Source of the DNA: Arthonia radiata
Lineage: Eukaryota; Ascomycota; Arthoniomycetes; Arthoniales; Arthoniaceae
Reading direction: 5' to 3'
DNA: 64,000 bases
Assembly: GCA_002989075.1 (NCBI GenBank)
Contig: PSQN01000017.1
Span: 248,001 to 312,000 of the forward strand
Shown: positions 1 to 48,179 of the stretch, piece by piece
Layout of the letters: every line of letters starts with the position of its first letter
Numbering within the stretch: position 1 is the first letter of the stretch
The notes under the pieces: generated by a model
Database searches by the model: none
What the model was told of the DNA's origin: nothing
Seen by the model: the letters and a program-made list of their open reading frames with translations, nothing else
Position numbers and translations under genes: made by a program

Positions 1-2040
1 CGTCTTAGAGATATAGTTGTAAGTATACTATATATAAATCCTAGAGGAATCGTATAGTACAACTTTAAAGCAAGATTTTAAGACAAGCACCTTAAAATCT
101 ACAATATATCTTTTAGTTCTCCTTCGAATCTACTTATTACTGTAGTCAACACTTTAACAACGAAAGACGTCTAAAGCAAATATCAACGTTCTCTCGGACA
201 GCGTCTCTTTAGCGCTGCAAACTAACTAGTAAACGAGTCTCCCAATATACAGGGTAGCGGCCGCCCCTTGTACAATTAACTATTTAAAGCCGACTACAGA
301 TATTAAGACAATAATCTAACTTACAAGCAGTGCGACTATAACACCTCTTAGCTTGTTTGGCGGCCGAATTGGGGTTAAAACGATTACGTTTATGTGTATT
401 AGAGTCTTATCGCTTCTAGCAACGAAGTTATAAAGAACGCAAAAGAGCGTAACCGACTAGCTACCGAGAGGAGCGTCTTATGCTTCGAGATAGAGGCGGC
501 TGAGCTGAAAACTAATCTTAGATAGCTGGTTATTCGAGGTATCTACGACTATTGCGATTCGTATAAGAACAAGAATTAGCAGAATTACGCCGTATCTGTG
601 GCAGCAGCGTATACAAGAGAGCTCCTAAGAGAAACGCCTAGTCTTAAGGGCGAGGCCGAGGTTACTAAGTTGTTAGGTTTAAACAAGAAAAGAGCTGTTT
701 TTAACTAAGAGCGAATATTAGGTAGTTAGTTAAATAACTTTACTAGAGACATTTAGACGACAGAAGGGAAGGCGTTCTTTAGAAATTAGCTTTAGTCTAA
801 TAAACCTATATACTTTTAAGTATAAGGAAAGGTTATGTAGGCTAGAATATCTATTTAAGATTAAGAACTAAGGCGAGTTAACTAACTAGCAACCTACTTT
901 CTAGTCTATATGTCTTTATATATATTATTTTAAGAACAAATCGTTAGTTAGTTAAAAAACATATAATTAGCTGTTATTATTTAGTAGAAGGGAAAGTAGA
1001 TAACGATAGTAGGTACGGTCTGCTAGAACAAAATAAAGATAAGCCGAGTATAGAAAGGACGCGTCGGAAGGCGTCTTTAAGAAGAATAGAAACTTTGCGA
1101 CTACAATATATACAAGAAAGAGAATATAAATAATAATAGTAGTTATAGAGTTAGGCTCTTTTAGCGTTAATTAGAGTTAATACATAAGCACAATAAAAAC
1201 TCGCTATTGCGCTTATTTTTGCGGCTGTCCTCGAGAAACCCTACTTAAGTACCTAGTGCCCGGCGCCTAGATACGCCTTACAGCGTCTTCCGAGACGTAA
1301 ATATACCGGCTACAAAGCTATCCGAATCTAAAATAAACGTCTAATTCTTTGTAAGTTGCAGACAATTTTAAGTTATGCTATTTAAAACTTAAGCTATAAG
1401 AGAGATCTTAGCACTCATTTGCTAAAATTCTTCGTATATCGTATACGAAAGTATACTTCTCTATCGTTGATACCCCTAAAGATTGGGTTTAACTCGTTTG
1501 ACAAGGAACGGTATCGATAAGCGGGGCTCGTAGCTTCTTGGTCTAGCTATTTACGGCGTAATTTAGAGTATCACGTATCTTTCTTGTTGCCTTATCTTTT
1601 GCCTCGTCTTTTACCTCGCCTAAGCCGTATTAATATACCCCGCTCTCCGCTATTTTAGCTCCTTGTTTCCTACGAAAATCTACCCGAACTATACTCTTTA
1701 TCTTACTATTCTTGTCTATAATATAAGACAGACGTACAAAAAGTACCAGCGCTTAGCAAAGTTGTGGCAGTATTGCTAAAGCTTTAAGAAACAGATTCTA
1801 TTCTCTTAGAGTCAAGTACCAAGCTATAACAGAATATAAGCGCGCGCAGCGGAACTATATACATTAAAGCTACGTATCTAGTAGGGTAGGTTTCTTTAGA
1901 GCACAATTAAAAGACAGCCTAGTTTATATGACAAATAGTAACAAAGTTCTTGTCTTTACTAGCTCTTCGACTTAAAAGCTAGCTAGAACGTATAAAACTA
2001 AATAAAGATAAGTAGAGATAACCGTCGATAAAATCGATCG
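1..2040. other. RIP-mutated DNA upstream of the NLR gene, possibly its N-terminal part
   Basis: No intact gene. From about 418 to 800 a + strand frame stays readable if TAG/TAA are taken as mutated Gln/Trp codons. It includes EVIKNAKERNRLATERSV and later AAAYTRELLRETPS. The first stretch loosely resembles the helical N-terminal regions of fungal NACHT-WD40 receptors, but no named domain could be assigned. From 800 to 2040 the frame breaks repeatedly. It may be the N-terminal half of the following receptor gene or another decayed element. Confidence 0.35.
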
Positions 2041-4583
2041 GTCTTAGCTTCGTACTCTATAATATCTAGATACTTGAGTCTTAAAGAATTAACTAAAGGA
2101 GAGTAAAGATAAGTTGCTCTTTAAATATATTTAATAGCTTACGCAGAATAATTAATACGTACAGTAGCGGAATAGTAACAATGTCTGCCTACTATAGATT
2201 AAGGGTAGCGCTAGTAAAGGCAAGACTATACTGTTAATTGGTCTTGTTAAGCGGCTGTCCGAGAATTTACGTAACTTGTCCGTAGTAACTTATTTTTTCT
2301 ATTAGAATGCTAACTAGAAGCTTAATACCCTTAAGGCAATAGTTAAAGGGCTTATTTTATGCCTTATACATTAGCGCGCTGAGCTCAAAGAGTATCTACG
2401 ATTTCGCTAAAATGCCGCTAAAGGCCGATTTAAGCTAAATCTTACCTTATAGATAGAGCTTTAAAGTATCTTTATAGAGATGCTAGAAAGCTACAAATAT
2501 TAGCGAATATATATTATTATTAATACTCTTAATAAGTGTTAAAGTAAAGGTATAGCTAGTTTATTAAAATTACTTGTTTAGACGAGAACTAGTCGACCCT
2601 CGAAAATTAAATAGTTACTTATAAGTCGACCGCTAAATAGTGCTGAAAGAGAGTTACTGTCTAGCTACGAACAAATGTATATAAGCCTCGAGCTCAATTT
2701 AAGTTACGTTGCTCGAGCTGTCGCAGACTACGTTGCCTACAAGACGAGAGAGCTCAACAATCGTAAGAGCTACGGATCTAAGCTACGCAACACGATAGAA
2801 GTAGAGCTAAGAGAGCGAGCCGAGGAAACCTTCTTGTAGGTAAGCTTAGTATATAAGACACTAAACGATATATATTAAGATAAGGCGCTTGCGACGCTTT
2901 AACGTATACTATTAGGCTTAGATACTATTTATAAGCAAGTTCTCGATTAAATTGAGAATAGAAAGTTAATAATTATAAGAAGATGCTTCCGTCTACTTTA
3001 AGTAATAATGTTAGCCTACCGACTATTAAGTATAGAAGAAGCCGCAAGTATTGTTGTCTCGACTAAGGAGAATACAGATAATCTTAACGCCTTAATCGAT
3101 CGATATACTTCAATTGTAAGGCGGCGAGAGAATACAATCGAGTTTGTTTACTAATTGGCTCGAGACTACTTAGCAGAAGACAAAGGAAAATCTCGACTTA
3201 GCCGCTTTAAGATCTATAGACATAGTAATATAGCGTAGTAGTGTATATCCGTCTTCCTTAAATAGCTAAGATTCAATATTAGAAACCTACTATAGTAGAA
3301 TTTAGGTACGTAGTTAGTAACACTATCTAATAAGAGCAAGAGATAGGACCGCTCTATAAAGTTTTAGTATACAGCTATCTCTTGGGCATACTATATTAGT
3401 TTAAGATACTTTAGAAGATTAAGGGCTTGTAGCTAGATTTTTGTATAATAGGTTTCTAAAGTAGCTAGAGTACCTTAGCCTATAGAATAAGCTGTCGTAT
3501 GCTATCTTAATGCTAGCTGAACTAATTAAACTCGTATAGGTTTGTATTCTCTCTCTATAAGCTTCTATGTTTGCTCTAGCTAATTGTATATTTAGGAGAA
3601 ATCTTTCGTTCTATAACTTATACAAGATGCTAGACGGATTCTAAAACGATACTACAATGTTATTGCAACGTTACTCTTACAAGCATATATTTGTACGATA
3701 GTCTTTAGCTCAGAAAACAGCCTAATTAGAAGGTTTAACGAGAGTAAAAAGCCTTTGTAGTTAAATTAATTCTCTACGGACGAGGAGAACTAGAATGCTC
3801 TTTCTTAGACGTTAATCGGTCGCTTAGACTAGGTCAACGCTGTCGCCTTCTCGCCCGACGATAAGTAGGTCGCGTTAAGATCTAATAACAAGACAATTAA
3901 GCTATAAGACACGGCGACGGGTAAGAAGCTAAAGACGCTAACCGGTTACTTAAGCTGGGTCCGCGTCATCGCCTTCTCGCCCAACGGCAAGTAGATCGCG
4001 TTAGAATCTGTTGACAAAACGATTAAGCTGTAGAACACGGCAACGGGCAAGAAGCTAAAGACGCTAATCGGTTACTTAAGCTCGGTCTAGACCGTCGCCT
4101 TCTCGCTAGACGGCAAGTAGGTCGCGTTAGAATCTTATAACGAGACAATTAAGCTATAGAACACAGCGATAGGCAAGGAGCTAAAGACGCTGACCGGTTA
4201 CTTAGGTTAGGTCTACGCCGTCGCCTTCTCGCCCGACGGCAAGCAGGTCGCGTTAAGATCTTGTAACGAGACAATTAAGCTATAGGACACAGCGACGGGC
4301 AAGGAGCTAAAGACGCTAACCGGTTACTTGGGTTAGGTCGACGCTGTCGCCTTCTCGTCCGACGACAAGCAGGTCGCGTTAAGATCTTGTAACGAGACAA
4401 TTAAGCTATAGGACACAGCGACGGATAAGAAGCTAAAGACGCTAACCGGTTACTTAGGTTGGGTCGACGCCGTCGCCTTCTTGCCGGACGGCAAGCAGGT
4501 CGCGTTAGAATCTCGTAACAAGACAATTAAGCTGTAGAACACGGCGACAGGCAAGAAGCTAAAGACGCTAACTGGTCACTTAG
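2041..4583 (+). pseudogene. NACHT-WD40 NLR-type receptor pseudogene, 5' part
   Basis: Fungal STAND/NLR receptor of the HET-E/HET-D class; such proteins act in non-self recognition and programmed cell death. In one + frame, with RIP stops read through, there is a pre-NACHT stretch (LRT..., then QWRN...VCLLWIKG) leading to a P-loop at 2204-2227 (GSASKGKT). A Walker-B-like IIINTLNKC follows near 2513-2540, where the family has ..DALDEC. A long helical region runs to about 3300. From about 3810 near-identical WD40 repeats with a 126-nt (42-residue) period begin, with AVAFSPDGK and TIKL(W)D motifs and TLTGHL/TLTGYL linkers. Six full repeats are seen before the gene is cut at 4583 by Gypsy-1. Trp codons of the WD motif are mostly TAG. 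The start codon is not identified. Confidence 0.85.
4579..4583. repeat. Target-site duplication CTTAG, left copy
   Basis: CTTAG directly precedes the LTR terminus and recurs at 12232-12236 after the other LTR. The exact 5-bp match fixes the insertion point in the WD40 repeat linker. Confidence 0.92.
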
Positions 4584-5276
4584 TGTAACGCCGGGCGGCC
4601 GTAATCGCTTTGCTTGGTCTTATTCTATATCAAGGGTAATATAATCTTGAGAGGAAGATAATTACTAAGATATTTAACTCGGAAGGAAAGATCAAGGAAG
4701 CAAGGGACAAACTATAAGTCTTAAACAAAGAACTTAGTCGGTAATATAAATAAGCTAGAAGGATTGTACTGAGGCCGTATAGAAAAGCTCTCTCAAGACT
4801 CGGTCGCTCTATTTATACGCCAACGTAGCTGTAGGGTCCTACCTCGCGCTAATACTTACGAGAATTGCTCGTAGCTTACTAGTTGTGTTACAGCAAGAAG
4901 AACTAATTAGATTCAATACCTTAGAGTTAATATTAAACAATAATATTAATTCTAAATCTAAATTTACGGATATCTATCTACTAAGGTAAATAGTTATCCT
5001 ATCTATATAGTCTATAATATAGCTTGTGCTCTAGGTCTACTAGAGCTGCTAGGGCTGTTAGAGCTGCTAGACGGTCTAGTACGTCTAGCACGTCTAGTAC
5101 GTCTTAGCAGGTTACATAATAATTAGTAGTACTAGAGCTGCTAGGGCTGCTAGACGGTCTAGTCCGTCTAGCATGTCTTAGCAAGTTACGTAACTCTATA
5201 GTTGTAATTGGCTGTTTATATGTTTGTACAATACTAACTATAGCAGGTTAGGTTATACTGGCGCCGCATCCTAACA
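4584..5276 (-). repeat. 3' LTR of Gypsy-1
   Basis: 693 bp, same length as its partner. On + it starts TGTAACGCCGGGCGG and ends GCATCCTAACA. It differs from 11539-12231 mostly by transitions. It holds short clustered direct repeats around 5036-5190 built on CTAGAGCTGCTAGGGCTG and GTCTAGCACGTCTAG, also present in the partner LTR. Confidence 0.93.
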
Positions 5277-5282
5277 TTAGCC

Positions 5283-5293
5283 CCTCTCTAGGG
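5283..5293 (-). other. Polypurine tract of Gypsy-1
   Basis: On minus the sequence reads CCCTAGAGAGGGGCTAA just before the 3' LTR. The purine run AGAGAGGGG is in the expected place for plus-strand priming. Confidence 0.6.
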
Positions 5294-5377
5294 TTAATTC
5301 GTTCTCGATCAACCTTTCGATCTTAAAAGGCTGTCTGCTTTCTGTTCTTCTTTTTCTTGTCCTGTAAGTTGCCCGTT

Positions 5378-6209
5378 ATGTCTTCTTCGAGGGACTTTGC
5401 TAAGTTAGCTATTAAAAGCCGTGTGTCTAAGCCTTGTAAGTTTTGTAAGCCTCGTTCTACTACAGATCTCGAACAAGCTATTCGTCGCTCTCTTGCTGTT
5501 AAACGTCCTGTCGTAGACAGCATACCTCCTTGTTCTAACTATTCTTGTTAAGGCAAGAAGTGTTAGCTAGTGTTAAAAGACGTTACTTGTGCTACCTGCA
5601 CTTAGTCTAGTTCGGTGTGTAACGTTCGTATAACAAGCGAGGATAGTGTGTTTGTATCTTGTTTGTTTTGTTGTTTGTAGCTAACCTGTTGTAGTAGACT
5701 TTCTTTAAGAGCGTCGTAAGGAGCTTTACGAAGAGAAGCGTTAAATTAAAGAGGAAGACCGTTAACGAAAGAAGAAGAGAGTTAAGAATAATGCTGCTCG
5801 TACTTATACTCGAGTGCAGGAGGATGTTAAGAGTCAGCTTCGGTTGCTTGATGCTAATAATCGGATAGCTGCGGCTAAGCGTAATGCTGCGGATTATGCT
5901 CGTTGGAATGCCTTGATGTGTGCTAAGGAGAATTTGGCTCAGTAGAACGGATCGTAGATTACAGATACTGGTTTAGAGTTCTTAGCTAAGGGTTCTACTA
6001 TTAGTAACTTGGATTCTACTGTTGGTTTTAACGTTCCTTTAGAATCTTGCGATAATTCTTAGTACCGTCTATTGTTCTAGTAGCGTAGCTTCTTCCTTCG
6101 TTGCATTAGGTTTATTTAGTAGTAGTCCTTTTTAAGTTCTCTCGACAGGTTTTCTACTGGTTCCTATGTATTTTCTAATTCTAGATATTCTTTCTACTTT
6201 ATAAGATAG
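5378..6209 (+). pseudogene. Antisense spliced Zn2Cys6-type gene of Gypsy-1 (aORF)
   Basis: Runs opposite to gag-pol, between the end of pol and the 3' LTR. Exon 1 starts at ATG 5378. At 5531-5620 it has a cluster with spacing C-x2-(C)-x6-C-x8-C-x2-C-x6-C. Five Cys are intact; the second position is Tyr (TAT). A GTGTGT...GCTAAC...TAG intron, 5646-5694 (49 nt, phase 1), follows SED. Exon 2 is rich in Lys/Arg/Glu/Ala (KELYEEKR, KKKRVKNNAARTYTRVQED, LRLLDANNRIAAAKRNAADY), probably coiled coil, and stays readable to TAG 6207. Its stops are TAA/TAG at likely Gln sites. The spacing matches the Zn(II)2Cys6 DNA-binding family. The 3' end overlaps the chromodomain antisense. DNA binding is inferred. 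Confidence 0.75.
5646..5694 (+). other. Intron in the antisense gene of Gypsy-1
   Basis: 49 nt, GT donor GTGTGT, branch-like GCTAAC 9 nt before the acceptor, ending GTTGTAG. The length is not a multiple of 3; removing it joins the Cys-cluster frame to the charged exon 2 frame. An acceptor at 5697 gives the same phase. The position is homologous to introns at 32841-32891, 47642-47691, 63153-63199 and 35462-35510. Confidence 0.75.
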
Positions 6210-9200
6210 GATAGTTTATTCTAAGTTTGTTTGTGTCCGAGTATTTATTCTATCTAGTATATATTGTTTAAGTTAGGTACCTCTGCTTTTTTCTTGCTTA
6301 CTATTAATACTTTTTCTAGTGCTAGCTTAAGGAGTAACTTATAGAAGACGTTGTGTATACGTATCATTAGTAGTAGTTCTAACCTAAAGGTAACTAGTTC
6401 TAATACCTTTGCAATCTTAAATAGTCTAAGTTTTGTATAGTCGAGCTTATTGTATAGTCGATCTATTTTAATATATTGTCTATAGAGATAAATAGTGCCC
6501 CCCTCTTTAAGGTCTGGTCCCTTAGACCTAGACTTATTCGCTGTATTTCGTATACCCTCTGATATCTATTGCAGTTTAATTTTTATATAGTCGTAAATAA
6601 TCTTTCTATGCTTATAAAGGGTGTCGGCGAGTTCCGAATTCGTAGTTTGAAGTCTAGCGTCTCTAGTTAATGTTAGGTGTTGTCTATAGTTAACGTAAAA
6701 GGGTGTTTCTTCGGTAGCGCTTGCGCTATTGTTATACGTAAACATTGCTAATAGTAGCAACTGTGTCTATGTTAGTTGTAAGTAGTCAACATACGCTTGT
6801 AAAAACTGTTCTAGCGTCTAATTGAGTCGTTCTGTTTGTTTATCGGTTTGTAGGTAAAAACTTGTTGATAGTTTTCTTTTTGTTTCTATAAGTTTTAGAG
6901 TTGTATCTCAGAACTTAGAAGTAAACAATTGATCTCTGTCTAAGATAATTTCTTTAGGTGCCCTATGTTGCGTAACAACATGTTTGTACAAAAGAAATGC
7001 CGTTTCTTAGGCTGTTGTGCTCTTGCGCGTAGGAATAAAGTATCCGTACTTCGTAAATCGATTCATAATAATAAATATTGTGTCGTAGTTAGTTATGTTT
7101 CCTAGTTTCGATAATAGTAGTAAGTTAGTAATAAAGTCTATTGTTAGTAAGGACTATGGTTCATTAGAAATTTGTAACGGTTGTAGTAAGCTGTAAGGCT
7201 TGTATCTTTCTAACTTAGTTCTTTTGTAGATATCGTACTTTTAGATAAAGTCTACGATTTTTGTTTATAACTTTGGTATAAAGTACGTTCTTGTTAATTT
7301 CTCTATCGTAGTTGCTGTTTCTCTATAACCTTCTTTGTAGGCCTCCTAAATAACTATATTTTGTATATTATATAAAACATAGATCTTTCTCTTAAAGGTT
7401 TTAAGTTTATTCTTATCTTTCAGTCGCATGTCTTGCGTTGTTCGATCTTTCTTGTACCCTTGTATTAGTTCTTGCCTTTTAGACTAATCCTCAATTCTTA
7501 TTGTTATTGAGAGTTCGCTGACTCGGTTGGGTCTAAGCGTACCATCTAAATTCTCTTATAGAATTATATATAAGACTTGCGTTTTGTTTACTATATAGTC
7601 TAATCTTCGACTAAGAGCGTCGGCTCTTTGATTTTTTGATCCCTTTTAATATATAATCTGTATGTCGAACAATACTAATTCTTCTAACCATCTTACCTAT
7701 CTTCGGTTAAGAACCTTAGTTGTCGTAAATTGTATTAGGTTCTTGTAGTTAGTAATAATATATACTTAGTGCTTGGGCATTGTACAATAGTACTTTCAGT
7801 ATTTGAGTAATTCGACGATTAATAGTAGCTCCTTATCGTAAATATTATAGTTGAGTTCTAGTACTATTATCGTTCTTAAATAAAATGCTACTGAGTATAG
7901 TACATTTTTGTTATCTAGTTGGCTTAATGCTGATTCGATTGTATAGTCGGATATATCTGTCTCTATGATAGTTGGTTTATTGTAGTTGAAGGTCGTTAGA
8001 ACTAATACAGACGTAAAGTGCTGCTTTAATTTCTGAAACGCGTTCTGTTAATTCTTTCCTTATACGAAGGGTAAATCTTTTTGTATAAGTCTTGTAAGCG
8101 ATAAAACTACTCTAGAGTATTTATTAATAAATCTTCTGTAAAAGTTTCTAAAGCCGAGGAAGAATTGTATTTCCTTTACAGTTTTTAGAGTAGACCACTT
8201 AAGTATAGCTTTTATCTTGTTTAGTAATATTTTAATTATGCTAGGCTAAATAATATATCCTAGAAAGTTAGTTTCCTGTATATAAAATTTATACTTCTAA
8301 AGCTTAACACGAAGATTGTATTTATCTAGCTGTTTTAATATCTACGCAACGTGTTGCTTGTATTTCTCTAGCGTTTTAGAGTAGACAATAATATCGTCTA
8401 TATATACTGTAACAAACTCGTTAAGGTACTTCTTTAGCATACTGTTAATATGTCGTTAAAAGGTTGCTAGTACATTTACTAATCTAAAAGGTATAACGAG
8501 GTATTTATAGAGACTAAAGGGCGTCTTAAATGCTATTTTCTACTCGTCTCCTTCTCGTATTCGGATTAGATTGTATGCTCCGCAAAGATCTATTTTTGTA
8601 AACTATTGGGCTCCCCGAAGAGAGTCCATTTTGTCGTTAATAAGTAGCAAAGGGTGTCCGTCTTTCTTCGTTATAGAATTTGTTAGTCGATAGTCGATAA
8701 CCGGTCGGAGCTTGTCTCCTTTCTTAGGAACAAAGAATAGAGAGCATTTAAATAGAGCTTCCGATTTTCTAATAAATCCTTTCTTCTCGAGTTTATTAAC
8801 GTATATTTTATATTCGTCTTGGTAGTCTGGTCTCATTAGGTATAATTTTGTGCTCTTGGGATTTAAGTCGGGTAGGAACTTAATTTTGTGGTTCTATAGT
8901 ATATGTTTTAGTAACTCGTTGTCGGCTTCTTCTTTAAAAACTCGTTTGTATTGCTAGTATTCCTTAGGTAATACCGGGTAAGGAGTATCGAGGCTTGTTA
9001 ATTCGGCTACTTCTCTTATTTAGGCACGCTCTCTACGTCTTTTAGTATAATAGGTTGGTATAGCCGTTACTAACTCGTCGATAGCATTTTCCTATAGATC
9101 TTCTATAGACGAAATAGTCCGGTATTGTCTTGCTTCCTGTCCTAGAAATAACGTTAGTACGTTTCTTTATTGTAGTATATATCGATTTAGGAAAGGTGTT

Positions 9201-10000
9201 CCTAGAATTGCTTGATATGCTTCAGTATTAGTAACGTTCAAGACAATTTTTTCTTAAAATTGTGCTGTTCTTATAGTAGTTCTAACTTTGTGTGTAATAG
9301 CGCTGTTTTAATATACATTTCTAAATCTATTCGCGACTTGTAGATCGTACGGAGATCCTTTCTTATGTTGTTTTTTCTAAATTTTGGATACTGTATTGAA
9401 GTAGATAAAATTTTCTGTTGCTTCTAAATCGATTATAATAGTAACTAGGGTTCTGTTAAGTAGTACTTTTATTCGTTCCTATTCTTTTCCTAATAGTAAA
9501 CAAAGTGTTTCTACTAGCTTCTTGGGTAGAGACTTGGGCGCCGTTATCCTCGTTCTTTCCTAAGTTTATAGACGGCGTATTCGTTTCCCGATGGTACTAA
9601 GTATGCCCGTTTCTATGTATTGTAGTAGTTAGCAATAACCTGTTTCCTAAAGGTTTTATCGGTGTCTGAGTGTCCGTTAAATTGTTTGATTGATACTTAA
9701 AACTCTTTACTAGTCTTAATTGCTCGTACTACGTACTATCCTAGGAATACTACTACTCCTGTTATTGTGTTAACGAGAATATTATTGAGACGTGGTACTG
9801 GTTTATGGCCTTGTCTCATGAATCTAAGTTTATTAATAAGTAACTGCATTCTTGCTCGGGCTTCTAGGTCCTGTAAACATAACCTAGCTGTTTGTAATTA
9901 CAATATTGCGTTTGTATAGTCGGGTTGTTCTTTGTCTTCTTCGGATAATAATAATTTCTCTTCTTCTCGAAGCTGTTCTTCATTGGCTGCTAAGACCTAA
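6100..10000 (-). pseudogene. pol: Gypsy-1 pol: protease, RT, RNase H, integrase, chromodomain
   Basis: One minus-strand frame is almost continuous if RIP stops are read as Gln/Trp. RT has LRPVIDYR near 8690-8720 and YIDDIIVYS around 8380-8410. RNase H follows (ETDISDYTIES, about 7950). Integrase has a zinc-binding region near 7260-7370, core segments TIDFITNL and ILDRDQLF, and a TDKQTERLNQ-like stretch near 6800. A chromodomain at about 6130-6270 has YLIK(W)KEYLELENT(W)EP. The 78-codon stop-free stretch 8603-8836 is the RT palm. Chromodomains steer integration to marked chromatin in this clade. Confidence 0.9.
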
Positions 10001-10089
10001 GATTCGTCGATCGGTTGGTTTTCCGATTCTTTTATAACTACGAATCTTATAAGCTGTTATAGAGCTTCAATATTATAATTCTCGAATTC

Positions 10090-11490
10090 TTAAAGTTGTT
10101 GTCCTTAATTGCGAGCCAACACTACTGAAAGCTGCTCGTAATAGTTGTCTCGTAGCGGGATCCAATTCTAGTTAATTTTCTTGATTAGAACTATGTTGTA
10201 TGCGTCTTTTAAGTTAATTTTTGGTTTCTAGCTAGCAATCTCCTTTGATATTAATTTGATCAATACTAAAAGGAAATTTAACGAATTCTTAGGATTCTCG
10301 ATTGTATAGGCTTCAAGTTGCGCTAGCGCTTCGGCTACGTTTTTCTTATTGTATCCGCCTCGTTTAAGAGCATAAAGCTTCTTAGTCGGGCTTTTCTGTT
10401 TAGATCTACATTTAGCTGCTCTATGGCCCTCTTTGCCGCAATAAAGGTAGAGGTTATTAGTAAGTCGATACTTTCGGTCCTTTTCCGAAAGTTTTCTATA
10501 TTTCTTTTAACTGGGTTGCGATTCTTTCTTCTAAAGCGCATTAAGATTTATAGGTTCGGTACAACGGTTGTCGTAGCGATGTCGGAACGTATTCGGTGTC
10601 TAACTAGGCTGTTTACTAGTTCGTTCGCGTTTCTGTTCTCGAAGTCGTTGGTTAAGTCTCGTTACTTGAGACTTAATGTTCGTAAGTTGTTCTGCGCGTT
10701 CCTTATACAACATAAGATTCTTTATTTCCTCGTTGAGTTCTTTGTAGAACTAAACTACTAGGGCTTCTTTATCGAATTCTGTGATGTAAGCGTACGTTAT
10801 AAACTTGGCTGCGTACTGTGTTACTAGTAAATTGCCTTGTTTAAATTCTTTGAGCTTGTATTGTGCTTCAAGCTTCTAGTTTCTTCCTTTATATATGTTC
10901 TTGAGTGTCGTTATAAATACTGTATAAGATCTAAATACGCGTTTTGTTTTCTTCTTTGCTTCGTTGCCGTTGTCGAGATAGTCGTTAAGGAGTAGTAAAA
11001 ACTACAAGAGTACATCTCTACGTAGGTATAACCCTATATAGATTACCTTCTTTATATCGGTAGCTAACTTCCTTTGCTTGTTAATAAGGTTAATTTGATA
11101 CAAGCTGAGAAATATTTGCAGAGACTGTTTGTCTCCTCGAAATTCTGGTATCTTAATATTATTGTTTCTACGTACTATAGTAACATCTTTGTCTTAAGGT
11201 ATATTGGTCCTTTAAGGATAGTTTAAAGATTCTAGTTGGGTTGTTGCTTTCTTAAGAAGGTCCTCTGAGATTCGTTTAAGAGTGTCTAGGGTACTTGACC
11301 TGTACGTTCGTAGTATTGTCTATTTTTCTACTCGTTTACTTCTGTGTGAGGACGAGATTGATACACTCAGTACTAAAGTTAAGCTAGACAATCGGTGTCG
11401 AGGGACCTTTGTTTGTTCTTTCTCTAAAGAACTATCTGAGAAATTGTTTTTTAATAGAGTCTTGTTTCTAGATAAGTTAGTTATAAGAAC
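10090..11490 (-). pseudogene. gag: Gypsy-1 gag: capsid and zinc knuckle
   Basis: The minus-strand frame contains a typical retrotransposon capsid: VLLWFLLLLNDYLDNGNEA, then TQYAAKFITYA and VQFYKELNEEIK. A nucleocapsid region ends in a CCHC knuckle around 10405-10445 read as Y-x2-C-G-x2-GH-x4-C. The first Cys of the knuckle is Tyr (TAC), as RIP of TGC would give. Few stops interrupt the frame. The start codon is not certain. Gag forms the virus-like particle and binds element RNA. Confidence 0.85.
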
Positions 11491-11538
11491 AGTGGTACAT
11501 ACCTTAGTTTGTTAGTTGCTTGAGGCAATCTATAAAAG

Positions 11539-12231
11539 TGTAACGCCGGGCGGTCGTAACCGCTTTACTTAGTCTTATTCTATATTAAGGGTAATATAAT
11601 CTTGAGAGGAAGATAATTACTAAGATATTCAACTCGGGAGGGGAGGTTAAAGAAGCAAGGGACAAACTATAAGTCTTAAACAAAGGACTCAGCCGGTAAT
11701 ATAAACAAGCCAGGAGAATTGTACTGAGGCCGCATAGAAAAGCTCTCTCGAAACTCGGTCGCTCTATTTGTACGCCGACGTAGCTATAGGGTCCTACCTC
11801 GCGTCAATACTTATAAGAATTGCTTATAGCTCACTAGTTGCGTTACGGCAAGAAGAACTAATTAGGTTCAACACCTTAAAGTTAATATTAAACGATAATA
11901 TTAATTCTAAATCTAAATTTACGGATATCTATCTACTAAGGTGGATAGTTATCCTATCTATATAGTCTATAATATAGCTCGTACTCTAGGTCTGCTAGAG
12001 CTGCTAGGGCTGCTAGGGCTACTAGACGGTCTAGCACGTCTAGTACGTTTAGCACGTCTTAATAGGTTACGTAATAATTAGTAGTGCTAGAGCTGCTAGG
12101 GCTGCTAGACGGTCTAGTCCGTCTAGCACGTCTTAGCAAGTTACGTAACTCTGTAGTCGTAATTGGCTGTTTATATGTTTGTACAACACTAACTATAGCA
12201 GATTAGGTTATACTGGCGCCGCATTCTAACA
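11539..12231 (-). repeat. 5' LTR of Gypsy-1
   Basis: 693 bp, partner of 4584-5276. The element-side sequence directly inside it (on minus CTTTTATAGATTGCC) is the primer-binding region. It does not look like a tRNA-complementary site starting TGG. It resembles the PBS of the type A/B elements (CTTTAATAGACTCGC), which suggests a related priming mode. Confidence 0.93.
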
Positions 12232-12236
12232 CTTAG
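12232..12236. repeat. Target-site duplication CTTAG, right copy
   Basis: Exact match to 4579-4583. After removal of the element and one copy, the WD40 reading frame is continuous. Confidence 0.92.
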
Positions 12237-12945
12237 GTTGAATCGACGTCGTCGCCTTCTCGCCGGACGGCAAGCAGGTCGCGTTAGAATCTTGTAACAA
12301 GACGATTAAGCTGTAGAACACGGCGACGGTCAAAGAGCTAAAGACGCTAACCGGTCACTTAGACTGAGTCCGCGCCGTCGCCTTCTCGCCCGACGGCAAG
12401 CAGGTTGCGTTAAAATCTTATAACGAGACAATTAAGCTATAGAATACGGCGACGGGCAAGGAGCTAAAGACGCTAACCAGTTACTTAGGCTAGATCTACG
12501 CCGTCGCCTTCTCGTTCGATGGTAAGTAGGTCGCATTAGAATCTGTTAACAAGACGATTAGGCTATGAAACATTACGTAATTTCGCCAATCTTAAAAGTC
12601 TTTAGTAGCGTTTACAACTCAACATCTTAGACGGTATAAGTTTTAGAAGATAGAGACAACTAAGCTAGTTACCAATATTAAGTTTAATTAAGACGGCTTG
12701 CGTCTTATAACAAATGCCGGTCTCTGCGAGGTAAAGAGTCTAGCCGAAAAGCAAAAATTACTACAAGTATTGTTAAATGCTCTTTAGATAAGCAACGGTT
12801 GGATTAGATACAGAGTTACTCGTCTAATTTACCTCCCACCTGAGTTTAATTTGAAATACTGGAAGATATAGGACAAGCAAGTTGTTATTAGATTCTCTAA
12901 TAGGTCGGTGCTTATCTTTAATATCGATGTTAGATATCTGTCTCG
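12232..12945 (+). pseudogene. NACHT-WD40 NLR-type receptor pseudogene, 3' part
   Basis: This is the continuation of the receptor interrupted at 4583. Joining the two sides across the duplicated CTTAG restores the repeat frame (TLTGHL|G..DVVAFSPDGK). Three more WD40 repeats follow to about 12575, giving nine in all. The C-terminal segment has the conserved tail of this protein class: LRLITNAGLCEV, then a (W)I...RLIYLPPEF stretch, ending in VLIFNID near 12930. Stops in frame are TAG/TGA at expected Trp or Gln sites. It is non-functional as it stands. Confidence 0.85.
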
Positions 12946-14640
12946 GTACCCGTAAATCTCTAGACATATAATAGCTATAAGCTAGAGCTACACAAATATT
13001 TGTGTTCCTTAGACCTCTCTATTAATTTACTACTTAGATAACTGTTATCTGAGTTTAGAGATATTAAGGCTGTTAATACCTAAAGATATAGTATTTGCGG
13101 CTTGCGTTGTAATATTAGTAGTATTTATTGTATTCGCTTGTTGCGTTAATATATTATAGTAAGAGTATAGAGGTTGCATAATTAGAAGACAGAATTAACA
13201 ATAAAAAGAGGAAGTAAGCTACAGACCGCTTTAAGATTAGTAATAAGGAGGAAGTAAGATATATGCTAGGGATCGGGTATTACTTAGATATGCTTAGAGA
13301 GAACATTAGAGAGGAATAAAGCAAGGATTAGAGTATAGTTTGTGCTAAACTAACACGCTTAGTAAATATAGAGCTGCGGCTAACGAGACAAGTCTTCTTT
13401 TATAAAAAATCTCTCAATATCTGAATCTTTCCTCCGTTATTTATAACTCTAGCGCCGCCTCTTTACTTACTTTGTCTTCGTTTCGTTAATAATCGTACTA
13501 TACCGGACCTATAGCGTAGCCGCGATCGCGCTAGGAGTAAACGTTGCTAGGTCTCCTTCTAGGCGAGTCCCTGCTTCTCCCGCAGGCGAAGCAGCGACTC
13601 GTTATCGTTATTTATATACCTTACCCTCTTTTGCGCGTATAAAATATTAGTAGAAATATAAAGGACTAGAGTAAGGGAAGCTGCGCTACGTCTCGAGGCT
13701 ATCGAGGTACTAACGGTACGCTCGCTACCTTAAATATAATATAACTTTGTACGATTCTAGCCCTAGGACCTCGAGAATATCTTATAAAGACTATTAACTA
13801 GAGGTAGTCTAACGTTCTAGTAGAATTATAGCTATCTTGTATCGTAACATACACCTAACATAACGTTTAAAGGAGCTAGATAAGAGACACTACGAACTTC
13901 TCTATATACAGACAGTCGGAAGTTATATAGACCGCGCTAAGCTGCAGTCTTAGAAACTTCTAGAAGCTTTTACGACATCTTTTAATCGAAGTATCGAGTA
14001 CTAGATACATAAGATAAATCTTTAAAATGCCTGCGCTACGGTAAGAGTAGGCAATTGCTTAGAATAGTTTATACTGTTGTTAATAAGCCCGTACTAAAGA
14101 GCAAACCTATCTATATCTCGAATAGCGTAAAGACTACAGCAAAAATATTGTTCTAGTATCTATTAGTATAGGCTAAATATTAAATCTTAAGGTACGGTTA
14201 GTGCTATCCGAGGAATAAGACATTTACTTACTATTTAGGTATTCTATATATACGCAGTGTCGCCTATTATAATTAATACCTACTATATCTTTACTTTACG
14301 GTTACTATCTTAGTCTTTATTTAACTATAATAGACTTAAAGCGCAGCTCTAATATGCTCTAAGAAGAATCAGCACTAGATCTCATTAAAGAAGAGCTTTT
14401 GCCTGTCGCGTAAATAGAGAAGTGCTTTGCTATCTTCCTTAATATACTTAACTCTCTTTTATCTGCGCGGTTCCCCTTTTAAAGACGCGTCTAACTACGG
14501 TAACAGAAGCTATATCGTACGTTGGAAAGACGCGGACATTAATAGGACCCTCTTAATATTAAAGGTGATTCTAAATTTAACCGAGCTTCTATTAACGCGT
14601 TCGAGGAAGCTCTAGATCGGCTGTCGTTTAGATGCGATTT
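12946..14640. other. Unresolved RIP-mutated DNA
   Basis: 12946-13200 continues past the receptor end with a hydrophobic + frame. From 13380 to 14640 both strands give partly readable frames: on + LKELDKRHYELLYIQTVGSY near 13880, and on minus Arg/Ser-rich frames. No family is recognised. The 62-codon open stretch at 14427-14615 lies here and is not convincing as a gene. Confidence 0.4.
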
Positions 14641-31900: not shown

Positions 31901-32460
31901 CACTGCTACACGAATAGCAACGAATATAAAGACCCTACATAAGCAGTTAAAGGCTGACAGCGAGTTTATTAACGAACGAACAAGGAAATAGTATAACAAG
32001 TTAAGAACAACCCCGAACACAAGCATAAAAGAGGGGGAAAGAGCTTACTTGCTCATAAGAAACTTAAAAACTATCAGACCAAGCAAGAAACTTAACTATA
32101 CTAAGACGGAACCGTTCAAAATCCTATAGCAATTAGGATCCGTAATATTTAAACTCGAACTCCCGAAGACAATAAGAATATATCCTGTATTCTACGTAGC
32201 GCTGTTAAAACCAGCCTACTTCCGAGAAGCAGAACGATCTAACCTAGAAATCCTTTCTAACAATCAAGAACCTGAGTATAAGGTTAAAATAGTTCGAGCT
32301 TATAGACAATACCGAGGAAAATAATAGTATCTTATAAAGTAGAAAGGATATTCTAAACACAAAAATTAATGGAAACCGAAACGAAACCTAACCAACTATA
32401 AAGACACTATTCGACAATATTGGAACTAGAATATTAATCGGTGGTAGCAGCACTAACACT
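28990..32460 (+). pseudogene. pol: pol of the young Gypsy: protease, RT, RNase H, integrase, chromodomain
   Basis: Nearly continuous frame. Protease-like D-x-D-V-T-G-N-F-I lies near 29,010-29,045. RT spans about 29,690-30,330 with [11 protein letters not shown] and YLDD at 30117-30128. RNase H (IETDALDYII, then ADALSRR) covers about 30,550-30,930. The integrase zinc region (H-x-H and Cys-derived residues) is about 31,160-31,320; the core has LLDFITKLP and VLDRDRKF, then QTDGQTERTN near 31,685. The chromodomain lies at about 32,275-32,430 (YKVKIVRAYR, then YLIK(W)KGYS). Remaining stops are RIP-type Trp/Gln changes. Confidence 0.92.
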
Positions 32461-33126
32461 CTAATCTACTATCTAATATGCTTTACTGGCATCTAGATTA
32501 CCTACAAACGAACCAGCCTACTACGTTATAGGACCACTACCCAACTTCGGGTAAGAATTACCCCGAAAGTTAATAAATAACCCGCTCGGACATTTAAATA
32601 TATCGCTACCAGCTATTAACGCAGCAAACTTCTCTTGCTCCAACAACTTATTTTAAGCTAACTTCGCTGCTGCCCGCGTACAAGTCTTCTTAACCTCCTT
32701 TTTTAACTTCCGAACCTTAGATCGGTTACGCTATATAGCCGCAATTAACGCTGCTACCTGGGACTTTAACGCGCGTAACTAACGTTTCGTATGCTAAAGG
32801 GCAGCCGACTAGGAGGAATATTAAGAATAAACCGAACGCGCTGCAACTAAGTTAGTTCCAGGCATCACAGAAAGATAACAACAGGACATACTATCTACCA
32901 TCGATACCTGTAAATTACAACTCTTTCTATCTCAAGTATATACTAAACACGTCGCCTTCCTAAACTAAACTACACACCTTTCCTTAGTCGACACATATCT
33001 AAAACAAGAAGGCATTTCGATACCGTAGGCTTTAATTAACAGGTATTGGCTATACTTTTTATTAAGATCCGTAGCAACGGACTTTATACAAAGTATAGCG
33101 ACTTACAGATTAGTTACGAAAGGAGA
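32353..33126 (-). pseudogene. Antisense spliced Zn2Cys6-type gene in the young Gypsy (aORF)
   Basis: Minus strand, opposite to pol, between the chromodomain and the 3' LTR. A cluster at 32917-33006 has spacing C-x2-Y-x6-C-x8-C-x2-Y-x6-C-N. The Tyr codons are TAT, one G-to-A change from TGT, so the ancestral pattern is Zn(II)2Cys6. An intron at 32841-32891 follows VSMVD. Exon 2 has ALKSQVAALIAAI, KVRKLKKEVKKTCTRAAAK and LLEQEKFAALIAGSD, probably coiled coil. It ends at TAG 32353-32355 inside the chromodomain antisense. No ATG is assigned with certainty. Stops inside fit Gln/Arg codons hit by RIP. A DNA-binding or dimerising regulator is inferred. Confidence 0.75.
32841..32891 (-). other. Intron in the antisense gene of the young Gypsy
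   Basis: 51 nt on minus: donor GTATGT, branch-like ACTAAC, acceptor TTGCAG. It falls after GAT A (phase 1), the same codon position as the intron in Gypsy-1. Here the length is a multiple of 3, so the frame is the same on both sides. Confidence 0.72.
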
Positions 33127-33678: not shown

Positions 33679-35100
33679 ACGTATTAAGAAGACAAAAAAC
33701 AATATCTAAGATTGACTAAGAACAATAAAAGCTACTATAAGTTCTAAAGAAAAATCTATATTCTAAAAAACCTAATTCAATATATTATTAGTAATTTCTA
33801 TAATAACCTAATAAAAGAATATAAAGGTATTAACAATACTATTAAGAAGATTACAAGAACCTACTATATCTTAAGAATCTAACACTATGTTAAAAATTAT
33901 ATCTAAGAATACAATATATATATAAGAACTAAGTACTTAAGGTATTTACTATACAGTAAACTATAACTACTAAAAATATCTAAGAGACTATAGTATATAG
34001 TCCTACTAAACTTTATTACTAAGTTACTAATTTCTAAAGACCTACTTATAAGAGTAGCTTACAACGCTATTCTAGTTATATACAATAAGCTAACGAAATA
34101 CATATACTTTATAGTATACAAGAAAGCTAGTAATTTAGAACAATTAGTATATACCTTTCTTAGAATTATTCTAGCTAACTATAGACAACCTTAAAGAATT
34201 ATCTTAGATAGAGACTAGAAATTTGTCTTACAATTTTAAATATATCTTATATAATAATTAGAAACAAAATAGAAAATATCTACTTTATTCTATCTATAGA
34301 CCGATAGACAAACTAAAAGAATAGATTAAACACTAGAATAGTATATCTAAGTATATATTAACTATTAGTAGAACAACTAGATATAGTTGTTATTAGTTGT
34401 ATAGGCCGCGTATAATAATATAAAGAATAATATAATAAAAATAACTCTGTTTTACGCCTTATATAGCTACTACCCGCTTTAGAGAAGACAACTATAAAAT
34501 ACAACTAAAAACGAAACAGCTACACAAATAGCTATAAATATAAAAACCCTGTACCAGTAGTTAAAGTCTGACAGCGAGTTTATTAACAAACGTACTAGAA
34601 AGTAGTACAATAAGTTAAGAACTACTCTAAATATAAGCATAAAAGAAGGGAGAAGAGCTTACTTGTTACTTGCTTATAAGAAACTTAAAAACTAGCAGAC
34701 TAAGTAAAAAACTTAACTATACTAAAATAGGACCGTTTAAAATTTTACAGCAATTAAGATCTATAATATTTAAACTTAAACTTTTAAGAATAATAAGAAT
34801 ATACTCTATATTCTTATTAGCGCTATTAAAACCGGCCTACTTTTAGAAAGTAGAACGACTTAACCTAGAAATGCTTTCTAATAACTAAGAACTTAAGTAT
34901 AAGGTTGAAATAATTTAAGCTTATAGATAATATTAAGGCAAACAACAGTATCTTATAAAATAGAAAGAATACTCTAAATATAAAAATTAATAGGAACTAA
35001 AATAAAATCTAACTAACTATAAAGATACTATTTAACAATATTAGAACTAAAATATTAATTAGTCGTAGCAGTACTAATACTCTAATCTACTATCTAGTAC
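33679..35100 (+). pseudogene. Integrase and chromodomain part of pol of the old Gypsy
   Basis: Resumes directly after the nested element; matches 31063-32440 of the younger copy. The integrase zinc region is around 33,790-33,920, the core about 33,990-34,340, and the chromodomain region about 34,890-35,040. Dense TAG/TAA from RIP. Confidence 0.85.
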
Positions 35101-35790
35101 GCTCCGCCGGTATTTAGGTTACCTATAAATAAACTAGCTTACTATATTAGCGGTCTACTACCTAACTTTAGGTATAGATTATTATAGAAATCTATACTTA
35201 AGCTACTTAGTATATCTATAATATTACTACTAAATATAGCCGCTAGCTATTCTTCCTTAAACAATATATTATTTTAATCTATTTTATTTTGCGTCTAGAC
35301 GTATAACCTTTTAAGCTTCCTCTCTAAATCTATAACCGCCGCTTTAATAGCTTTATGCTATCTTTTTGCTATACGAACTACTTTCTTTTCTTCTACTAAA
35401 CGCTTATACTACTTCTAAAGGGCGTTCAATACTTATAAGTACTAAGAACGGATACTATAAGCTAAATAAGTTAAAAGTAGTCTAAATAAAACATTAGGAT
35501 AGAAACTAACTATCCTTTAACAATAGATAAACGTTATATAACTTTTGATTGTAAATATATATAAAGTATAATATCTTTCTAAACTTTAGAGTATACTTCT
35601 TTTTAGATAAGAGTAACGGAAATATAAAGGTATCTCTCGACTATAAACTTTAGTAAGGATAGTATTAATCTTAAGTACTTTATTAGCGTTAAAAACCTTC
35701 TTAACTTTAAATATAATAACTTATAGAACTATATCTATTACTAGATAACAATAAAGTTTTAATATCTCTAGGGTCGTTAAGAATAACTAG
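34974..35790 (-). pseudogene. Antisense spliced Zn2Cys6-type gene in the old Gypsy (aORF)
   Basis: Homolog of the antisense gene at 47380-48179 and 62665-63480. The Cys-cluster exon lies about 35,520-35,780. The intron is 35462-35510 (49 nt; donor GTTAGT, TTTTAAC, acceptor TTATTTAG). Exon 2 reads S-I-R-S-(Q)-Y-L then charged helices (AAVIDLERKLKRL). The frame in common with the other copies ends at TAG 34974-34976. Most Cys codons are Tyr codons. It is badly decayed. Confidence 0.6.
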
Positions 35791-47379: not shown

Positions 47380-48179
47380 CTAGAGATATTAAAACCTTGT
47401 TGTTACTTAGTAATAGGTTTAGTTCTATAAGTCGTTATATCTAAACTTAAGAAGGTCTCTAACGCTAATAAAGTGCTTAAGATTAATACTATCTTTACTA
47501 AAGTCTACGGCCGAGAGATACCTTTATATTTCTATTACTCTTATTTAGATAAGAAGTGTATTCTAAAGTCTAAAAAAGTATCGTACTTTGTATATATTTA
47601 CAATAAGAAGTTGTATAACGTTTGCCCGTTGTTAGAGGATAGTTAGTTTCTATTTTACGTTTATTTTTAGATTAGTTTTAACTTATTTTAGCTTAGAGTA
47701 TCCGTTCTTAGTACTTATAGATATTAAATACCCTCTAAGGGCAATATAAGTGTTTAGTAGAAGAGAAGGAATTTGTTTGTATAGCGAAAAGATAGCGTAA
47801 AGCTATTAAAGTAGCGGTTATAGATTTAGAAAAGAAGCTTAAAAGGTTATATATCTAGACGCAGAATAAAATAGATTAGAATAATATATTGTTTAAGAAA
47901 GAATAGCTAGCAGCTATATCTAGTAGTAATATTATAGATATACTAAGTAGCCTAAGTATAGATTTTTATAATAATCTATACTTAAAGTTAGGTAGCAGGC
48001 TACTAATATAGTAAGCTAGTTTGTTTATAGATAACCTAAGTACCGGTAGGACGCACTAGATAGTAAATTAGAGTATTAGTGCTACTATAATCGATTAATA
48101 TTTTAGTTCTAATATTGTTAAATAGTATCTTTATAGTTAGTTAGGTTTCATTTCGGTTTCTATTAATTTTTATATTTAG
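47380..48179 (+). pseudogene. Antisense spliced Zn2Cys6-type gene in the reverse fragment (aORF)
   Basis: On + because its host element is on minus. The cluster at 47527-47616 has exact Zn2Cys6 spacing. Only the third position is still Cys (TGT 47557); the other five are TAT/TAC (Tyr). An intron at 47642-47691 follows LLED. Exon 2 aligns residue by residue with the type B copy (S-I-R-S-(Q)-Y-L against S-V-Y-S-(Q)-Y-S; VAVIDLEKKLKRLY; LAAISSSNIIDIL). It ends at TAG 48177, the same place as in type B. The start is uncertain. Decayed by RIP. Confidence 0.7.
47642..47691 (+). other. Intron in the antisense gene of the reverse fragment
   Basis: 50 nt, donor GTTAGT, branch-like TTTTAAC, acceptor TTTTAG. 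Not a multiple of 3: the frames on either side agree only when it is removed. Confidence 0.75.

What the first reader, a model, noticed from the sequence alone, without database searches (positions are those of the whole stretch)
5378..6209. A zinc-cluster gene on the antisense strand of a Gypsy retrotransposon
Seen: between the end of pol and the 3' LTR of Gypsy-1 a gene runs against gag-pol. It has a cluster spaced C-x2-(C/Y)-x6-C-x8-C-x2-C-x6-C, a short intron, and a basic/acidic helical exon. Known: this spacing is that of fungal Zn(II)2Cys6 DNA-binding domains. Inference: the element carries its own antisense regulator, perhaps controlling its transcription or targeting. Hypothetical fungal proteins with a similar Cys cluster and charged tail exist as I recall, so the protein family may be known even if its retroelement location is not.
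Basis: partly seen in the sequence, partly recalled or inferred. Interest (0 to 1): 0.9.

Follow-up and report, generated by a model that had tools for sequence, protein, structure and literature searches.

The report
Antisense zinc-cluster gene in fungal retrotransposons
A fungal jumping gene carries, on its opposite strand, a small spliced gene for a protein with six cysteines of a metal-binding kind and a charged helical tail, and related jumping genes in the same genome carry it at the same place, so it looks like a real accessory gene whose job is still unknown.

Summary
Gypsy-1 (LTRs 4584-5276 and 11539-12231, pol on the minus strand) carries a plus-strand gene: exon 1 5378-5645, 49-nt intron, exon 2 5695-6062. 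Most of 6063-6209 belongs to the end of pol and its chromodomain. This copy is broken by RIP-type mutation. The gene is shared by four groups of copies (A-D, my grouping) with the same place, cysteine spacing, intron place and charged second exon. At the six cluster positions 34 copies read only Cys or Tyr (204 cells: 136 C, 68 Y). One natural copy has an unbroken spliced 203-aa frame. 56 of the 60 best chromodomain hits in the genome have the gene tail-to-tail. Codon-position statistics support coding only moderately. PF00172 scores below its cut-off (20.3 against 21 bits) and out of register, so the protein is Zn2Cys6-like, not a proven member. Antisense accessory genes at this place are known (brtn in Boty; plant Retand). 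I found no paper describing a zinc-cluster one, but could not read the brtn paper or compare its protein. Best guess: a dimeric nucleic-acid-binding regulator of the element's own LTR. Function is inferred, not shown.

The parts
4579..4583 (.). target-site duplication CTTAG, left copy (right copy 12232-12236)
   Evidence: flanks read
4584..5276 (-). 3' LTR of Gypsy-1 (element runs on the minus strand)
   Evidence: 4582-5280 against 11537-12236, 91.3% over 700 nt; edges read
5277..5293 (-). stretch next to the 3' LTR, purine-rich on the minus strand, polypurine-tract-like
   Evidence: sequence; name inferred
5323..5328 (+). TTAAAA, TATA-like, 55 nt before the ATG; an A/T-rich box lies 48-57 nt before the start in copies of groups B, C and D
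   Evidence: promoter function inferred
5362..5369 (+). CTGTAAGT, 8 nt before the start codon (4 nt in groups B-D); resembles a 5' splice site; changed in some copies
   Evidence: function unknown
5378..5645 (+). exon 1 of the antisense gene (three in-frame stops in this copy)
5531..5620 (+). six-cysteine cluster C-x2-C(Y here)-x6-C-x8-C-x2-C-x6-C
5646..5694 (+). 49-nt intron, GTGTGT...CTAAC...TAG, phase 1
   Evidence: same place in groups B-D
5695..6062 (+). exon 2: charged, coiled-coil-like region and C-terminus, stop at 6060-6062
   Evidence: (relative L050)
6059..6079 (-). likely end of pol on the opposite strand; the first stops of the chromodomain frame beyond 6116 lie here, but in a RIP-mutated copy
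   Evidence: stops at 6077 and 6059
7796..8047 (-). RNase H piece of pol
   Evidence: RT_RNaseH_2 E=3.8e-19
10408..10449 (-). CCHC-type zinc knuckle of gag (first Cys reads Tyr in this copy)
   Evidence: pattern match only
11539..12231 (-). 5' LTR of Gypsy-1

Best explanation
It is an accessory gene of the element, read towards gag-pol from a start beside the 3' LTR, spliced once, and translated into a protein of about 200 residues: a six-cysteine (probably two-zinc) cluster followed by a coiled-coil-like helix. Shown here from sequence: position, splicing signals, cysteines fixed before RIP, in-frame indels, presence in four groups of copies, tail-to-tail arrangement with pol. Inferred: that it is transcribed, that the cluster binds zinc and nucleic acid, that the helix makes a dimer, and that the dimer acts in the nucleus on the element's own LTR to set its transcription, as retroviral antisense proteins such as HBZ do.
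For: Cluster positions read only Cys or Tyr in 34 copies, 204 cells, 136 C and 68 Y. Exon indels are multiples of three in groups A (one exception), B and C, while introns differ by 1-2 nt. Intron at the same place in groups A-D. Unbroken natural spliced frame of 203 aa in L050. 56 of the 60 best-scoring chromodomain hits have a tail-to-tail antisense partner, 52 of them with 7-16 nt between match ends. Between a B and a C copy the cluster is 59% identical in the coding frame against 33% and 38% in the other two forward frames. Coiled-coil families are among the weak Pfam matches of L050, best KIF9 E=0.0035, all below cut-off. gag has its own knuckle-like motif, so this is unlikely to be a displaced nucleocapsid. 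Plant Retand antisense ORFs are argued to bind DNA and regulate (PMC11963269, abstract and passages).
Against: PF00172 is not reached: best 20.3 bits against a cut-off of 21, 4 of 12 exon-1 pieces at E<=1, and the best stretch matches profile positions 13-33 with the first half of the cluster. Among 71 PF00172 hits in the genome I recognised no element copy (compared by eye). No proline precedes Cys4; the basic run between Cys2 and Cys3 is short. Codon-position bias is modest: group A exon 1 p=0.09, B+C exon 1 p=0.035 and exon 2 p=0.07, and within B or within C alone there are too few transversions to tell. No transcript data. The CGG-N6-CCG repeat in the LTR of this copy is missing from most other group-A LTRs. 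No homologue outside this genome was found, without a positive control that fungal proteins are in that database.
Confidence: 0.48

Rival explanations
1. The protein serves integration rather than transcription: a nuclear or chromatin-bound partner of the chromodomain integrase that guides the pre-integration complex.
For: The gene is paired with a chromodomain in 56 of the 60 best chromodomain hits; cluster plus helix would suit a tether.
Against: Nothing links it to integrase by sequence; the chromodomain alone is known to target such elements (recalled).
Confidence: 0.2
2. The RNA matters, not the protein: antisense transcription from the 3' LTR side makes double-stranded RNA or interferes with gag-pol transcription.
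For: Proposed for plant antisense ORFs (PMC7264820, passages); an antisense transcript running into pol would pair with the genome RNA.
Against: Cysteines kept at all six positions, exon indels in multiples of three, and an unbroken spliced frame point to selection on a protein.
Confidence: 0.1
3. It is a counter-defence protein, acting against host silencing (RIP, DNA methylation or RNA interference) rather than on the LTR.
For: The region is heavily RIP-mutated, so such a function would be favoured.
Against: Nearly all listed copies carry in-frame stops all the same; no similarity to a known suppressor was seen in Pfam.
Confidence: 0.1
4. A captured host gene carried as a passenger, with no role for the element.
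For: It has an intron and its own strand, as a captured genomic fragment might.
Against: Same place, intron and cluster in groups whose proteins are 23-46% identical to a B copy, and presence beside most of the chromodomains checked. No free host copy was noticed, but none was searched for specifically.
Confidence: 0.08
5. Chance open frame or shadow of pol.
For: Fragmented frames in the window copy. In L050 the pol frame stays open for a stretch beyond its first stop after the chromodomain, and in group A it shares third positions with exon 2.
Against: Exon 1 with the cluster ends some 480 nt from the chromodomain in the window (5645 against 6125); in group C the pol frame's third positions fall on antisense position 2, and position 2 is not the more variable one in B+C exon 2 (24/133; position 3 36/133); natural unbroken antisense frame.
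Confidence: 0.03

Closest known systems
brtn of Boty-like Gypsy retrotransposons (Botrytis cinerea; an antisense ORF in Sclerotinia too; a BRTN-like transcript in Monilinia)
   Same: Antisense gene between pol and the 3' LTR of a fungal Gypsy element whose gag-pol has gag, ZnF_C2HC, RT, IN and CHROMO domains (PMC4227169, PMC7264820, PMC8365987, PMC5987419: passages only).
   Different: The proteins could not be compared: Zhao et al. 2011 is not held and no brtn sequence was at hand. Whether BRTN has this six-cysteine cluster is unknown to me. It may be the same gene family.
Antisense aORFs (aORF-3R) of plant LTR retrotransposons: Grande gene23, RIRE2, Retand TRP28 (PF04195)
   Same: Antisense, between pol and 3' LTR, conserved in most copies; nuclear or DNA-binding role proposed (PMC7264820 and PMC11963269, passages).
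   Different: Other proteins and hosts; Retand is a non-chromovirus lineage; no six-cysteine cluster in the passages seen.
HBZ of HTLV-1 (antisense, 3' LTR side)
   Same: Antisense gene with a nuclear role in a retroelement (cited in PMC11963269, passage).
   Different: HBZ is a bZIP protein (recalled); here a cysteine cluster plus coiled-coil-like helix. Analogy only.
Fungal Zn(II)2Cys6 transcription factors (PF00172, GAL4 type)
   Same: Cysteine spacing C-x2-C-x6-C-x8-C-x2-C-x6-C and a helix after the cluster.
   Different: Below the Pfam cut-off and best stretch out of register, no proline before Cys4, weak basic stretch, no large regulatory domain.

Membership tests
Zn(II)2Cys6 binuclear cluster (PF00172) | C-x2-C-x6-C-x5-12-C-x2-C-x6-8-C spacing (recalled definition) | tested here: met
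   33 of 34 copies keep the spacing; L005 has a 1-nt insertion between Cys2 and Cys3. 204 cells: 136 C, 68 Y, 0 other
Zn(II)2Cys6 binuclear cluster (PF00172) | Pfam gathering score 21 bits | tested here: not met
   best 20.3 bits, E=0.0006, profile positions 13-33; 4 of 12 exon-1 pieces at E<=1; none recognised among 71 genome hits
Zn(II)2Cys6 binuclear cluster (PF00172) | proline in the loop before Cys4 (recalled; present in the GAL4 sequence) | tested here: not met
   no P among the 8 residues between Cys3 and Cys4 in the 21 copies, nor in the window copy; the other group-A copies were only read by eye
Zn(II)2Cys6 binuclear cluster (PF00172) | basic recognition run between Cys2 and Cys3 (as CRLKKLKC in GAL4) | tested here: inconclusive
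   mostly only the last two residues are basic or charged, e.g. GKKC, KRC, ERC
Zn(II)2Cys6 binuclear cluster (PF00172) | zinc and DNA binding | not testable with these tools
   needs protein
Antisense accessory ORF between pol and 3' LTR (aORF-3R) | antisense, between pol and 3' LTR | tested here: met
   Gypsy-1. In the 20 loci an LTR pair next to the gene was seen in 3 (L030, L033, L044); the others showed no such pair, the fetched stretch often ending before the far LTR
Antisense accessory ORF between pol and 3' LTR (aORF-3R) | present in most copies of the family | tested here: met
   56 of the 60 best of 149 chromodomain hits have a partner, one of them on a weak exon-1 hit
Antisense accessory ORF between pol and 3' LTR (aORF-3R) | antisense transcript from its own promoter | not testable with these tools
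   no RNA data; only a TATA-like box seen
BRTN (Boty antisense gene) | sequence homology to BRTN | not testable with these tools
   paper and sequence not held
Ty3/Gypsy chromovirus | LTRs with TSD, RNase H, chromodomain at the end of pol | tested here: met
   no RT phylogeny was made
HBZ-type retroviral antisense protein | bZIP domain (recalled) | tested here: not met
   no bZIP family among the 9 weak Pfam matches of L050 at E<=1

The most novel reading that the evidence does not exclude
Chromodomain retrotransposons of this fungus own a spliced antisense gene for a dimeric, zinc-cluster DNA-binding regulator that acts on their own LTRs: a fungal counterpart of HBZ that arose independently. 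The GTAAGT just before the start codon may even give a second, cluster-less spliced form.
Probability: 0.25. Interest if true: 0.75.

Novelty: new variant of a known kind. Interest (0 to 1): 0.5.

Why it matters
Antisense accessory genes of LTR elements are reported for plants and for Boty in Botrytis, and the review whose passages I saw calls their function unknown (PMC7264820). A defined cysteine cluster, an intron at a fixed place and an unbroken natural copy make the function testable: the protein suggests a nucleic-acid-binding dimer, and the element's own LTR is the obvious first target. If true, it would add a transcription-factor-like gene to the parts of fungal chromoviruses and parallel the antisense regulators of deltaretroviruses. 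It may also explain some of the small repeated cysteine-rich predicted proteins of fungal genomes (recalled) as transposon genes.

Tried and rejected
Shadow of pol: judged unlikely, not wholly excluded for exon 2. The chromodomain match ends outside the gene match in 53 of the 56 pairs, but the true end of pol is uncertain: by the first stop after the chromodomain it overlaps the gene by 23 nt in L050 (pol stop 1366-1368, gene stop 1386-1388), in copies that are themselves RIP-mutated. Displaced nucleocapsid: unlikely, gag has a CCHC-like motif. LTR binding site: CGG-N6-CCG lies in both LTRs of this copy, intact in two related copies and nearly so in a third, absent in the other group-A LTRs aligned; CGG-N12-CCG lies upstream of the gene in 13 of 13 B/C copies, but these are homologous and no chance level was computed; kept as a lead. 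Homologues elsewhere: three protein searches gave none at E<=10 among 109, 4126 and 726 candidates, without a positive control for fungal content. Solved structures: no convincing match. PHROGs: one tail tape-measure match over the helix, E=0.0026.

Corrections made on the way: the first C-terminal comparison of B and C was one codon out of register, redone (59% in the coding frame, but 54% in one reverse frame that shares its third positions, so weak). The first cysteine count in B-D was one codon off, redone. The intron finder accepted only phase-1 donors, so equal phase in its output is partly by construction; what supports the phase is that the joined frames stay in the exon-2 frame found independently by the protein search and that L050 reads through. 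It chose a wrong acceptor in 2 of 20 loci (L035, L047), and in some loci the start it reports is not the start codon. Codon-position tests within B and within C were uninformative. L030 was left out of that test because its exon 2 is disrupted; L033 (group D) was left out too.

Literature: searches (listings) found no paper describing a zinc-cluster antisense gene in a fungal LTR element. The library lacks most subscription papers; Zhao et al. 2011 was not held. In PMC3441728 (passages) 'antisense' does not occur.

Full report
What the window shows. Gypsy-1 runs on the minus strand between LTRs at 4584-5276 and 11539-12231 (BLAST 4582-5280 against 11537-12236, 91.3%), flanked by the 5-bp repeat CTTAG. 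Of five minus-strand pieces of the window's pol given to Pfam, one gives RNase H (E=3.8e-19), one the chromodomain (E=3.9e-06), one a weak SH3_Tf2-1 match below cut-off, and two nothing. gag holds a CCHC-like motif. The region is strongly RIP-mutated (TA/AT 1.57-2.12 in the 2-kb bins from 4000 to 14000). On the plus strand, about 100 nt from the edge of the 3' LTR, lies the gene of the finding: ATG 5378, exon 1 to 5645, intron 5646-5694, exon 2 to the stop at 6060-6062.

Is it a gene? At the six cluster positions the 13 copies read Cys 41 times, Tyr 37, other 0. Exon length differences are 9, 21, 33 and 33 nt, except one 1-nt insertion in L005, inside the cluster; leader and intron show 1-2 nt differences. 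RIP makes transitions, so I counted transversions: positions 1, 2, 3 carry them in 10/90, 5/89, 14/89 columns of exon 1 and 7/122, 3/123, 17/123 of exon 2, against 24/49 in the intron. Position 3 against 1+2 gives p=0.0005 for both exons, 0.09 for exon 1 and 0.001 for exon 2 alone; columns are not independent of the tree. Against a strong reading: the leader before the ATG varies as little as the exons (6 of 97 columns), and in exon 2 of group A the pol frame shares its third positions with the antisense frame.

The same gene elsewhere in the genome. A protein search found, besides group A, 39 weaker places (E 3.6e-6 to 0.66) matching mainly the cluster exon. Twenty were fetched and fall into groups B (12), C (7) and D (1) by their antisense protein; pol was not compared, and B and C share much of their LTR sequence, so they are not independent. 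The proteins of a B copy and those of C, A and D are 46%, 25% and 23% identical. They have the cluster with the same spacing, an intron of about 50 nt with a TAAC/TAAT-type box just after the cluster, and a charged second exon. In the 21 B-D copies (L050 included) the cluster positions read 95 C, 31 Y, 0 other. Between B and C the exons differ in length only by two 6-nt steps in 11 of 11 B copies compared, while introns differ by 1-2 nt. Transversion columns of B+C at position 3 against 1+2 are 27/68 v 34/137 in exon 1 (p=0.035) and 36/133 v 50/265 in exon 2 (p=0.07); within B or C alone there are too few to tell.

Genome-wide. Searches with a C, a B and a D protein gave 283, 205 and 21 matches; a match is an exon piece, the B and C lists overlap, and only 150 of 414, 150 of 460 and 40 of 40 candidates were scored. 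Of the 60 best of 149 listed chromodomain hits, 56 have this gene on the opposite strand tail-to-tail: 52 with 7-16 nt between match ends, three overlapping by 35-44 nt (group D), one at 87 nt resting on a weak exon-1 hit (E=0.036). The four without a listed partner are two in long open frames (1223 and 1679 codons), probably host chromodomain genes, and two I did not resolve. The other 89 hits were not tested.

A natural unbroken copy. Locus L050 (group C) reads through both exons without a stop: 203 residues, ATG to TGA, 51-nt intron; one cluster cysteine reads Tyr. By the first stop after the chromodomain, pol overlaps the gene by 23 nt there; beyond that stop the pol frame stays open for a stretch, so the end of pol is not settled. 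In group C the third positions of the pol frame fall on antisense position 2, and position 2 of exon 2 is not the more variable one in B+C (24/133 against 36/133 at position 3), which speaks against a pol-coded exon 2.

What the protein is. The spacing C-x2-C-x6-C-x8-C-x2-C-x6-C is that of fungal Zn(II)2Cys6 domains (recalled). The Pfam test is not passed: best 20.3 bits against 21, profile positions 13-33, pairing the first half of this cluster with the later part of the profile; 4 of 12 exon-1 pieces reach E<=1; the whole window product and whole L050 give no PF00172 match; and I recognised no element copy among 71 PF00172 hits in the genome. No proline precedes Cys4. I therefore call it Zn2Cys6-like. 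The helix of L050 gives only weak matches, mostly to coiled-coil families (my reading of their names), all below cut-off. A B and a C copy are 59% identical over the cluster in the coding frame, against 33% and 38% in the other forward frames; at the C-terminus 59%, with one reverse frame at 54%. No solved structure matches convincingly.

How it may work. A gene that starts beside the 3' LTR and runs towards pol could be transcribed on its own; a TATA-like box stands 48-57 nt before the start in the copies of the four groups measured and a CTGTAAGT box 4-8 nt before it, altered in some copies; the D copy reads ATA, not ATG, at the start. A small cluster-plus-helix protein would suit a dimeric nucleic-acid-binding regulator acting on the LTR. 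Every step after 'a spliced coding gene' is inference. Integration targeting and counter-defence are the main rivals.

What is known. Antisense additional ORFs between pol and the 3' LTR are described in plants and in Boty of Botrytis and Sclerotinia (PMC7264820, passages). The Botrytis gene is called brtn (Zhao et al. 2011, title seen in reference lists, paper not held), and a transcript similar to Pol and BRTN is reported in Monilinia (PMC5987419, passage). Plant Retand elements carry antisense TRP28 ORFs in 97% of clusters, with DNA binding and regulation proposed (PMC11963269, abstract and passages). No paper found here describes a zinc-cluster antisense gene in a fungal element (listings). 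Whether BRTN is the same protein could not be tested; if it is, the novelty falls to a new member of a known family.

Verdict. Observation confirmed with a corrected end; interpretation partly supported; new variant of a known kind.

Noticed in passing
window 3807-4583 and 12242-12566: 126-bp repeats stand on both sides of Gypsy-1; the left array translates as WD40-type repeats (by eye). With the CTTAG duplication this shows the element inserted inside a WD40-repeat gene (possibly NLR-like), now RIP-degraded.
   Followed up: partly
window 32437-32850 (-), 35061-35462 (-), 47691-48089 (+): Exon-2 matches of the related groups C and B inside the same window, from the genome searches.
   Followed up: no
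L009 (G000:C3:1-3500), around 1-95: A group-A copy is cut inside exon 1 by telomere repeats (CCCTAA), so the antisense gene abuts a contig end that looks like a chromosome end.
   Followed up: no
window 5362-5369 and the same place in other groups: CTGTAAGT, a 5' splice-site-like box, stands 4-8 nt before the antisense start codon in groups A-D, altered in some copies; it could serve a second splice form.
   Followed up: no
window 5031-5190 (3' LTR): Arrays of 9-bp CTAG-containing units and a GTTACGTAAC palindrome in the LTR; the arrays differ between subfamilies and the palindrome is RIP-altered in some copies.
   Followed up: partly
upstream regions of L030, L034 (B) and L045, L050 (C): B and C share much of the LTR sequence but differ in the part next to the antisense gene, as if by recombination (by eye).
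   Followed up: no
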